Assembly (NCBI GenBank): GCA_000499405.2
Contig: HG738141.1
Location: forward strand, 1,492,481 to 1,556,480
DNA: 64,000 nt
DNA from: Onchocerca volvulus
Lineage: Eukaryota > Nematoda > Chromadorea > Rhabditida > Onchocercidae
Reading direction: 5' to 3'
Part shown: one piece after another, positions 60,618 to 61,586 of the stretch
How the letters are laid out: each line of letters begins with the position of its first letter
Position numbering within the stretch: position 1 is the stretch's first letter
Program-made: the position numbers and the translations under genes
Notes under the pieces: model-generated
What the model saw: the letters and a program-made list of their open reading frames with translations, nothing else
The model's database searches: none
Told to the model about the DNA's origin: nothing

Positions 60618-61586
60618 TTAGTGAAAAATGGATCGTACCAGATCCATATTAAAATCATAGTTAAAACGCATACTTTCATTTGTTTTGTTCCAAATCCACG
60701 TCAGTGTAACGCGACGGTTAAATGCAGCCATGTCATATTTGGCTACTACATCCTCTTCCCACCAAAATTCCGGCAGCTTATTACTGGTTATGACCAGCGC
60801 TTTGCTATTAAATTTGGTGAAACCACCCTTTATTTGCACCAAATGCCTTTTGGAATCAGCCAAATGGAATAATTCGGGCGGTGAAAGCCACCCGTAGAAT
60901 TGATCCAAAATTACAACCTCCTGCTGCTCGTATCCGTCCCACCATTTTTCGGTGTTTTGGGTTTTCATAAAATAATTTTTCGACAAGCTACAAGCAAAAG
61001 TCGTTTTCCCGACGCCCGGTTCTCCAATTATTAGATATAGCTCTGTTTGTTCCGTTCGATCCGGAATAAGCATTGCTTTTAGTGACATTATTTTGTTAAA
61101 ATTACGCATTACAAAAACATTATCTCTTTCCACAAATTCCTCAAGCGTTATTTCATTGCTATAAAATTTTTTCAACAAACTTGATTGCTCTTCCATTCGT
61201 CTTCTTCTTTCCATGCGAACCGGTCGTTCACCAATTTCTCGTACAATATATTCCTTGCTACAGTATAAAAAATTTTGGTACGGCGTACCTCTTGCCTGCT
61301 GTAGATGCGTACCGCGTGGTAAACGTGCCTTCAATGTTGCAAAACGTACAGCCGAATTGAAGTAAAAGTAGCATTGATAATGGATACGTCTTGTAGCTGC
61401 GCATGTTTCACGTCCAATTATTCCATATTTTAGCCCATTTCCAATATTTTCCAACAATTCGATTGTAAAATTACCGAAATCAAATATCGTAACCGTCCAA
61501 CATTTTGCTCGTGCATGATATCTTGCTGCTGCCGCATCGATATTATCATTAGTAGTAGTTGATACTACGTTTAATTGATCAACCAT
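60618..61586 (-). CDS. rep: Endogenous circovirus-like (CRESS-DNA) Rep protein
   Basis: Rep nicks a circular ssDNA genome at its origin and drives rolling-circle replication. This single frame of 322 codons has no stop or frameshift, about the length of family members. The HUH endonuclease half shows motif I (WTVTIFDF, 30-37), motif II (His69-Tyr-Gln71) and motif III (YCSK, with catalytic Tyr108 and Lys111). The superfamily 3 helicase half has Walker A (GEPGVGKT, 188-195), Walker B (VVILDQFYGW, 224-233), motif C (LVITSN, 264-269) and an arginine pair (291-292) in the finger position. Walker B has Gln229 where a second acidic residue is usual. The downstream pattern (FYGWL, IKGG, ITSN, P-x-x-W) is closest to Circoviridae-type Reps. 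ATG 61586 is preferred over upstream non-ATG codons because a splice acceptor ends 3 nt before it. No capsid gene is seen nearby. Confidence 0.9.
   Translation of the reverse strand: MVDQLNVVSTTTNDNIDAAAARYHARAKCWTVTIFDFGNFTIELLENIGNGLKYGIIGRETCAATRRIHYQCYFYFNSAVRFATLKARLPRGTHLQQARGTPYQNFLYCSKEYIVREIGERPVRMERRRRMEEQSSLLKKFYSNEITLEEFVERDNVFVMRNFNKIMSLKAMLIPDRTEQTELYLIIGEPGVGKTTFACSLSKNYFMKTQNTEKWWDGYEQQEVVILDQFYGWLSPPELFHLADSKRHLVQIKGGFTKFNSKALVITSNKLPEFWWEEDVVAKYDMAAFNRRVTLTWIWNKTNESMRFNYDFNMDLVRSIFH

What the first reader, a model, noticed from the sequence alone, without database searches (positions are those of the whole stretch)
60618..61586. Intact circovirus-like Rep gene inside a nematode contig
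A 322-codon frame with HUH motifs (His69-x-Gln71, Tyr108, Lys111) and SF3 helicase motifs (Walker A 188-195, Walker B, motif C, arginine finger) has no stop or frameshift. Old endogenous viral copies usually decay, and an A/T-rich setting like this should generate stops quickly. Retention suggests recent integration, selection on a domesticated Rep, or a still-mobile Rep element. Motifs are seen directly; the circovirus-like placement rests on established family motifs; domestication is inference.
Basis: partly seen in the sequence, partly recalled or inferred. Interest (0 to 1): 0.9.

Follow-up and report, generated by a model that had tools for sequence, protein, structure and literature searches.

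The report
Intact virus replication gene in river-blindness worm
A gene for copying the DNA of a small circular virus survives unbroken in chromosome-end-type DNA of the river-blindness worm, one of about nineteen copies of the same kind of virus gene, most of which are broken and many oddly folded back on themselves.

Summary
In detail: window 60618-61586 (minus strand) is an unbroken 322-codon circovirus-like Rep gene in an Onchocerca genome (almost surely O. volvulus). It is no contaminant: the assembly holds 19 Rep loci, and the flanks match DNA beside a telomere. Rep copies in O. volvulus were reported in 2011; three things look new.

(1) Some copies keep a capsid-like gene facing Rep.

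(2) 11 of 18 other Rep loci are long inverted repeats; no comparable repeat lies more than 14 nt from Rep in about 240 kb, nor in 40 kb of control. By eye, several are centred on or end at a viral GC hairpin. Arms drift neutrally; between loci the protein was constrained.

(3) In the window copy the second Walker B acid is Gln (Asp/Glu in 42 of 42 other homologues), a splice acceptor lies 3 nt before the ATG, and silent sites share the local strand bias (p 0.0035, but 0.06 without one unplaced locus).

Reading: a long-resident, host-retained relic with altered helicase, or about as likely a recent insertion. Orthology, polymorphism and expression could not be tested.

The parts
60618..61586 (-). 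Intact Rep ORF, 322 codons plus stop (HUH endonuclease + SF3 helicase)
   Evidence: AlphaFold2 model mean pLDDT 91; Foldseek: PCV2 Rep ATPase domain 8xms TM 0.84 by target, 1.4 A
61374..61382 (-). HUH motif II, H69-Y70-Q71
   Evidence: residues; coordinates counted from the ATG at 61586
61254..61265 (-). HUH motif III, Y108-C-S-K111
   Evidence: residues; coordinates counted from the ATG and read
61002..61025 (-). Walker A GEPGVGKT, residues 188-195
   Evidence: residues; coordinates counted from the ATG
60900..60902 (-). Codon CAA = Q229, in place of the second acid of Walker B
   Evidence: alignment; codon read; P0007 and P0009 share Q
61590..61605 (-). Splice-acceptor-like T12-GCAG ending 3 nt before the ATG
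57865..64000 (.). Chromosome-end-type repeat block (continues to about 66114 outside the window), C-poor on the Rep sense strand; colinear with C3:2774-7431, C3 starting in telomere repeats
59771..63203 (.). Segment holding Rep without counterpart in the C3 block (62537-63203 of it is present near the C4 end)

Best explanation
The gene is the Rep of a circovirus-related virus (phylum Cressdnaviricota, placement by Rep only) that infected ancestors of Onchocerca, integrated, and came to lie in a chromosome-end-type repeat block. Shown: the ORF is intact; it belongs to one Rep clade made up of filarial worms and Thelazia; its third codon positions have the same direction of strand bias as the surrounding block; a nematode-type splice acceptor lies 3 nt before its ATG; Walker B carries Gln. 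Inferred: it has lived there long enough for silent sites and flanks to drift while the protein was kept, so the host retains it. Inferred mechanism: the protein still folds as a Rep and can bind DNA and probably ATP, but with Gln in place of the catalytic acid of Walker B (role recalled) it should hydrolyse ATP poorly. A subunit of that kind could join and stall Rep rings made by related incoming viruses, acting as a restriction factor. Most other copies arose by repeated integration, drift neutrally afterwards, and many were folded back, several around a viral GC hairpin, before or at integration.
For: Silent sites: third-position G:C 127:77 in window + L012A against 80:91 in five open pieces of L014, L018 and L025, which lie in unskewed DNA (p=0.0035), and against 230:406 in eight clade-B pieces (p 8e-11); fourfold sites 45:23 against 16:25, p=0.009. 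Local flank skew on the sense strand +0.36 (window) and +0.38 (L012A), fourfold sites +0.32 and +0.33. Window-L012A dN 0.244, dS 1.82; omega=1 rejected in 8 of 8 between-locus pairs fitted (2dlnL 113-226), silent sites saturated. Neutral simulation: P(intact) 0.26 at 1% change, 0.003 at 5%, with 10% indels. Viral 3' flank: no significant right-strand hit at window or L012A. Splice acceptor: chance 0.001-0.014 within 6 nt by pattern. Q229. Fold.
Against: No ortholog of the window copy was found (best other protein 66%, O. ochengi), so selection inside the host is not shown; selection in the virus before integration would give the same dN/dS. The bias test weakens to p=0.06 without L025, which was assigned to this clade by best match only and is not in the tree, and to p=0.12 for the window alone against L014 and L018; L014's two pieces are arms of one palindrome. 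The 3' flank profile found only 2 of 5 Rep loci outside its training set (L015, L017; not L019, L024, L026), so its silence is weak. L011 is intact with virus-like codon bias, so intact recent insertions occur. The splice pattern was chosen after seeing the site, and L012A lacks it. Of three poly-A signal variants searched in 300 nt downstream, the window has only AATGAA. The ATPase defect and restriction role are untested.
Confidence: 0.4

Rival explanations
1. Recent integration: the window copy is an ordinary young endogenous viral element from a virus sub-lineage whose Rep already had a C-poor coding strand and Q229; it is intact only because there has been no time to decay.
For: Palindromic copies drift neutrally after integration: pooled arms of five palindromes give omega 2.0, not different from 1 (2dlnL 2.54), 30 of 35 differing codons nonsynonymous, while between loci the protein was strongly constrained, so selection mostly acted before integration. 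L011 is an intact copy with virus-like bias. C3 lacks the segment. The bias contrast within the window's own clade is only p=0.06 without L025.
Against: No viral intergenic flank was recognised beside the window ORF although several decayed copies keep it; its silent sites lean the same way as the local strand; Q229 needs two base changes from any Asp codon.
Confidence: 0.4
2. Still-mobile Rep-bearing element spreading among chromosome ends, in the manner of a rolling-circle transposon.
For: Two of the three intact copies (window, L012A) lie near the same family of chromosome-end repeats: L012:9179-9253 matches window 63199-63275 at 86%.
Against: No shared boundaries; best flank alignment 79.7 bits against 71.1 for the reversed control and 66.8 for the best of 20 block shuffles (upstream), 54.0 against 44.0 for the reversed control (downstream). 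The segment absent from C3 is partly present near the C4 end, so it is not a clean element. A capsid-like gene beside Rep elsewhere speaks for a virus.
Confidence: 0.08
3. The palindromic Rep loci are kept because their read-through transcripts form long double-stranded hairpin RNA that feeds small interfering RNAs against the virus. (Concerns the family; compatible with either reading of the window copy.)
For: 11 of 18 non-window Rep loci are inverted repeats, arms about 130-879 nt, 84-100% identical; none met the same criteria elsewhere in the DNA scanned.
Against: Arms drift neutrally at the protein level; a viral GC hairpin at some centres and ends offers a physical cause (by eye); no RNA data here.
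Confidence: 0.12
4. Assembly artefact: the Rep segment or the palindromes were created by misjoining or gap filling.
For: L012 and L026 palindromes lie beside gaps of N and L017 arms are 100% identical. The published O. volvulus assembly used gap-filling tools (PMC5310847, passages).
Against: Arms of the other eight differ by 0.7-16%. The leading stretch and Cap of L016 recur joined in an O. ochengi protein, P0056. A sequence from another source (P0003) equals the L011 copy at 100%.
Confidence: 0.04

Closest known systems
Endogenous circovirus-like Rep sequences of filarial worms (Liu et al. 2011, PMC3198968)
   Same: Same family and hosts: their table lists Brugia malayi 1, Loa loa 10, Wuchereria bancrofti 3, Onchocerca volvulus 5 (passages); [quoted passage not shown]
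   Different: In the abstract, passages and sections 7 and 9 that I read, no fold-back loci, filarial capsid gene, chromosome-end setting or Walker B change is described; the supplements were not seen.
Circovirus and Cyclovirus Rep (Circoviridae), e.g. PCV2 Rep 7lar/8xms, mongoose-associated cyclovirus Mon-32
   Same: Two-domain HUH + SF3 protein; structure match; nearest named sequence relatives, 32-34% identity.
   Different: The 9 filarial/Thelazia Reps in the tree form their own clade, 100/100, on a branch of 1.76 outside the group with Circovirus and Cyclovirus (93/87); its exact place is open.
Vientovirus FB Rep 9pqq (family Redondoviridae recalled)
   Same: Best Foldseek match by E-value, 4.3e-17, nearly full length.
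   Different: 22% identity, rmsd 13.4, TM 0.42, so the domains do not superpose as one body.

Membership tests
Cressdnaviricota Rep (HUH + SF3; motif definitions recalled) | HUH motif II H-x-Q and motif III Y-x-x-K | tested here: met
   H69, Q71, Y108, K111
Cressdnaviricota Rep (HUH + SF3; motif definitions recalled) | Walker A G-x-x-G-x-GK[TS] | tested here: met
   GEPGVGKT 188-195
Cressdnaviricota Rep (HUH + SF3; motif definitions recalled) | Walker B with two acids | tested here: not met
   LDQ; 42 of 42 other homologues and 24 of the 26 distinct filarial/Thelazia rows with a letter there have D or E. Homology and fold are those of the family, so it is a changed descendant; the claim that it works as an active Rep helicase is lowered
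Cressdnaviricota Rep (HUH + SF3; motif definitions recalled) | Two-domain fold | tested here: met
Circoviridae | Rep clusters with Circovirus/Cyclovirus | tested here: not met
   clade outside, position open
Circoviridae | Ambisense Rep and Cap | tested here: met
   L016: Cap-like ORF plus strand 4282-4764, Rep minus strand from 4970, 3' ends facing; L013 similar with a broken Cap; not seen in the window
Circoviridae | Pfam circovirus capsid match | tested here: not met
   no Pfam family listed for the 160-aa Cap at E<=10
Circoviridae | NANTATTAC nonamer in a stem-loop | tested here: inconclusive
   12 matches in the window against 14.6 expected; scattered matches in loci, no conserved stem-loop noticed
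Domesticated host gene | Orthologs kept in related species at low dN/dS | not testable with these tools
   no DNA of other filarial genomes held; no close protein ortholog
Domesticated host gene | Transcription | not testable with these tools
   no RNA data
Rep-bearing transposon | Repeated units with common ends | tested here: not met

The most novel reading that the evidence does not exclude
Filarial worms carry a two-layer virus-derived defence against a lost or undiscovered nematode DNA virus: an intact, ATPase-defective Rep that poisons the rings of incoming Reps, and a set of fold-back Rep loci that make hairpin RNA against the same gene.
Probability: 0.08. Interest if true: 0.92.

Novelty: new variant of a known kind. 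Interest (0 to 1): 0.62.

Why it matters
It points to a circular DNA virus lineage of filarial worms, with a capsid-like gene, for which the searches here named no free-living member. It gives a natural case for telling selection before integration from drift after it. If the palindromes form through a viral hairpin, they record how such DNA integrates. If the intact copy is expressed, it is a candidate antiviral gene in a major human parasite.

Tried and rejected
Tried without result: Rep in IMG/VR, 5 pattern matches, none a relative (one protein as query, so close relatives only). Pfam and solved structures for the Cap: nothing credible; Pfam also found nothing in the 89-aa stretch before it. 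AlphaFold of an O. flexuosa Cap relative: pLDDT 37, not used. Telomerase family search: silent in the worm and in all 14 controls, so uninformative. PHROGs gave generic ATPases and helicase loaders. IQ-TREE codon runs printed no omega; replaced by an own pairwise fit. P0007, named O. volvulus, has no match above 60% in the held genome, perhaps because its contig is not held. PMC12197738 was seen as passages only and not used.

Considered and rejected: free virus or contaminant (flanks are host repeats); a telomere role of Rep (ordinary TTAGGC repeats present); window segment as a transposon; a viral intergenic piece at 58348-58430 (GC-rich, resembles L013 by eye only, opposite orientation; not tested).

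Counting choices: 19 Rep loci = window, L011-L026 (16), L029, L030; they cover the 40 places. L022 and L023 lie on one small contig 8.8 kb apart and count as two; the two Rep places of L024 as one. Palindromes by arms >=100 nt, identity >=80%, spacer <=500: 9 of 16 and 2 of 2 (word size 7 and E 1e-5 there; 11 and 1e-8). The L021 repeat starts 4 nt and the L030 repeat 14 nt from the Rep match. Dropping the three doubtful ones (L012, L026, L017) leaves 8 of 15. Selection fits used uninterrupted pieces only: 5 of 11 palindromes for arms; 3 intact copies and 4 fragments for between-locus pairs. Filarial counts (26 of 28) hold two duplicate rows; without them 24 of 26.

Full report
What is there. 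The minus strand of window 60618-61586 holds an unbroken 322-codon ORF. Pfam finds Viral_Rep at residues 28-112 and the RNA_helicase domain at 185-270, both above cut-off. PCV2 Rep matches residues 53-304 at E 1.7e-31. An AlphaFold2 model (29-sequence alignment, mean pLDDT 91) matches the PCV2 Rep ATPase domain at 1.4 A and nuclease domains of circovirus Reps. The second acid is Gln (codon CAA, 60900-60902). In 42 of 42 homologues P0014-P0055 (mostly unnamed) it is D or E, as in 24 of the 26 distinct filarial/Thelazia rows with a letter there; the two others with Gln are P0007 (O. volvulus) and P0009 (unnamed), which have also changed other motif residues. That this acid is the catalytic one is recalled knowledge of SF3 and AAA+ helicases.

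Host and setting. The window is C6:1492481-1556480 of a 94.7 Mb assembly. C3 is 25,485,961 bases, agreeing with the 25.5 Mb X scaffold OM2 of O. volvulus in PMC5310847 (abstract and passages), so the host is almost surely O. volvulus; several of its Rep copies have O. ochengi proteins as closest relatives. From 57865 the DNA changes: GC skew of the plus strand falls to -0.2 to -0.46, and the stretch is colinear, at 76-92% in its main pieces, with C3:2774-7431; C3 begins with telomere repeats. Related pieces lie near ends of C4, C2 and C1 and at interior places of C2. The block ends near 66114, before the C6 contig end, so on C6 it is interstitial or a scaffold join. C3 lacks the 3.4 kb that includes Rep, but the C4 end has part of it, so this is not a clean insertion. 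A SIX-type homeodomain motif at 49116 fits the worm context.

The family. Forty matches group into 19 loci: the window, L011-L026, L029, L030. Three have long open frames from an ATG: window, L011 (311 aa) and L012A (312 aa); the others are fragments. The tree puts the filarial and Thelazia Reps (31 rows, pieces included) in one clade, 100/100; the window sits with L012, L014, L018, P0007, P0009 and O. ochengi P0002/P0013, with Thelazia beside them (95/94). With named viruses added, the clade (9 of 9 rows) lies on a branch of 1.76 outside the group with Circovirus and Cyclovirus; nearest named relatives are cyclovirus and circovirus Reps, 32-34% identical. Some filarial proteins come from contigs of 1-2.5 kb, which cannot be told here from free viral circles.

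A capsid-like gene. L016 carries an intact 160-aa ORF with an Arg-rich start (4282-4764, plus strand) that faces the truncated Rep (minus strand) across a GC hairpin. Six matches exist in the genome, itself included, and relatives came only from O. ochengi and O. flexuosa, one of them named 'Capsid protein' by its source. The D. immitis protein P0004 carries a similar stretch next to a Rep (by eye). The O. ochengi protein P0056 has the same leading stretch joined to the Cap, so that insertion predates the split of the two species. The source names P0056 Helitron_like_N; Pfam found nothing in the L016 stretch. The Cap itself has no Pfam or structure match, so 'capsid' rests on position, composition and a source's name.

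Fold-back loci. In 239,854 bases of held O. volvulus DNA, 9 inverted repeats meet arms >=100 nt, identity >=80%, spacer <=500; 9 of 9 lie on Rep or within 4 nt of it. The last two Rep sites, fetched later, are also inverted repeats (L029: 467 nt, 94%; L030: 338 nt, 84%, 14 nt from the Rep match), and four arbitrary 10-kb control stretches have none. So 11 of 18 non-window Rep loci are palindromic; the window copy, L011, L018, L020, L022, L023, L024 and L025 are not. Three of the 11 are doubtful (L012 and L026 lie beside gaps, L017 is 100% identical), leaving 8 of 15. By eye, the centres of L021 and L029 fall in the GC-rich hairpin that follows Rep, the arms of L030 end at it on their inner side and those of L013 and L016 on their outer side; the GC-rich centre of L026 I cannot place. 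Host junctions of L013A, L016B, L020 and L021 also seem to fall there (by eye). L012, L015, L017 and L019 centre elsewhere in the 3' flank or Rep end; L014 inside Rep. I infer that a strong viral hairpin stalled or folded the DNA, giving snap-back copies that then integrated; this does not cover every locus. Eight full-text searches of open-access PMC listed no paper on it that I recognised (listings only, and most subscription papers are not held).

Selection. Arms of five palindromes, compared over open pieces (617 codons), give omega 2.0, not different from 1, with 30 of 35 differing codons nonsynonymous: after integration they drift. Between loci omega=1 is rejected in 8 of 8 pairs tested, with silent sites saturated; NG86 for window-L012A is dN 0.244, dS 1.82. 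So most constraint acted before integration, in the virus, and low dN/dS between loci does not by itself show retention of the window copy.

Evidence that does bear on the window copy. Its third positions have G>C skew +0.23 (+0.32 fourfold), as in L012A (+0.26, +0.33), like their flanks (+0.36, +0.38), while L011 shows -0.20 against flank values of +0.18 and +0.07. Pooled, G:C is 127:77 against 80:91 in open pieces of L014, L018 and L025 (p=0.0035) and 230:406 in clade B. The first contrast falls to p=0.06 without L025, which is not in the tree. The viral 3' flank gave no significant right-strand hit beside the window or L012A, but the profile found it in only 2 of 5 untrained Rep loci. A T12-GCAG acceptor ends 3 nt before the ATG, chance 0.001-0.014 by pattern, picked after the fact and not met in L012A. 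Simulated neutral decay leaves 26% intact at 1% change and 0.3% at 5% with indels. Together these lean to long residence with the protein kept, without excluding a young insertion; L011 shows that intactness alone proves little.

Verdict. An endogenous Rep of a circovirus-related filarial virus is close to certain and, as a kind, known since 2011 (PMC3198968: abstract, outline, passages and sections 7 and 9). That the window copy is host-retained with an altered helicase is my committed reading at 0.40, against 0.40 for a recent insertion; its role as a blocker of related Reps is inference. The fold-back architecture and the capsid-like gene are the most unexpected parts.

Noticed in passing
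window 57865-64000: Abrupt change to C-poor (Rep sense strand), homopolymer-rich chromosome-end-type DNA; related pieces also lie inside C2 (6.43, 8.26, 8.91 and 13.08 Mb), which could be fusion scars, transposed ends or scaffold misjoins.
   Followed up: partly
L016:3700-5900: Viral Cap-Rep piece sits inside what a source calls a Helitron-like gene; O. ochengi P0056 shares the left junction.
   Followed up: partly
G000 C5:15881022-15881159 and C25:42325-42420: Telomere-type TTAGGC arrays, the first 167 kb from the end of C5, the second in another contig.
   Followed up: no
L022, L023 (C34): 33-kb contig with an 8.8-kb direct repeat, each unit holding an N-terminal Rep half.
   Followed up: no
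P0004 (Dirofilaria immitis): One annotated 498-aa protein seems to join a Rep, a Cap-like stretch and a second Rep start (by eye), suggesting Rep-Cap remnants there too.
   Followed up: no
L012:4662-4925 and 9722-9986: 265-nt direct repeat, 99% identical, with one copy at the edge of an assembly gap; possible haplotype or gap artefact beside the intact L012A copy.
   Followed up: no
window 52924-53757: Both strands are open for 275-277 codons over the same stretch.
   Followed up: no
L013:5290-6100, L016:4764-4850: GC hairpin between the 3' ends of Rep and Cap, where several copies seem to leave viral homology; no NANTATTAC seen in it.
   Followed up: partly
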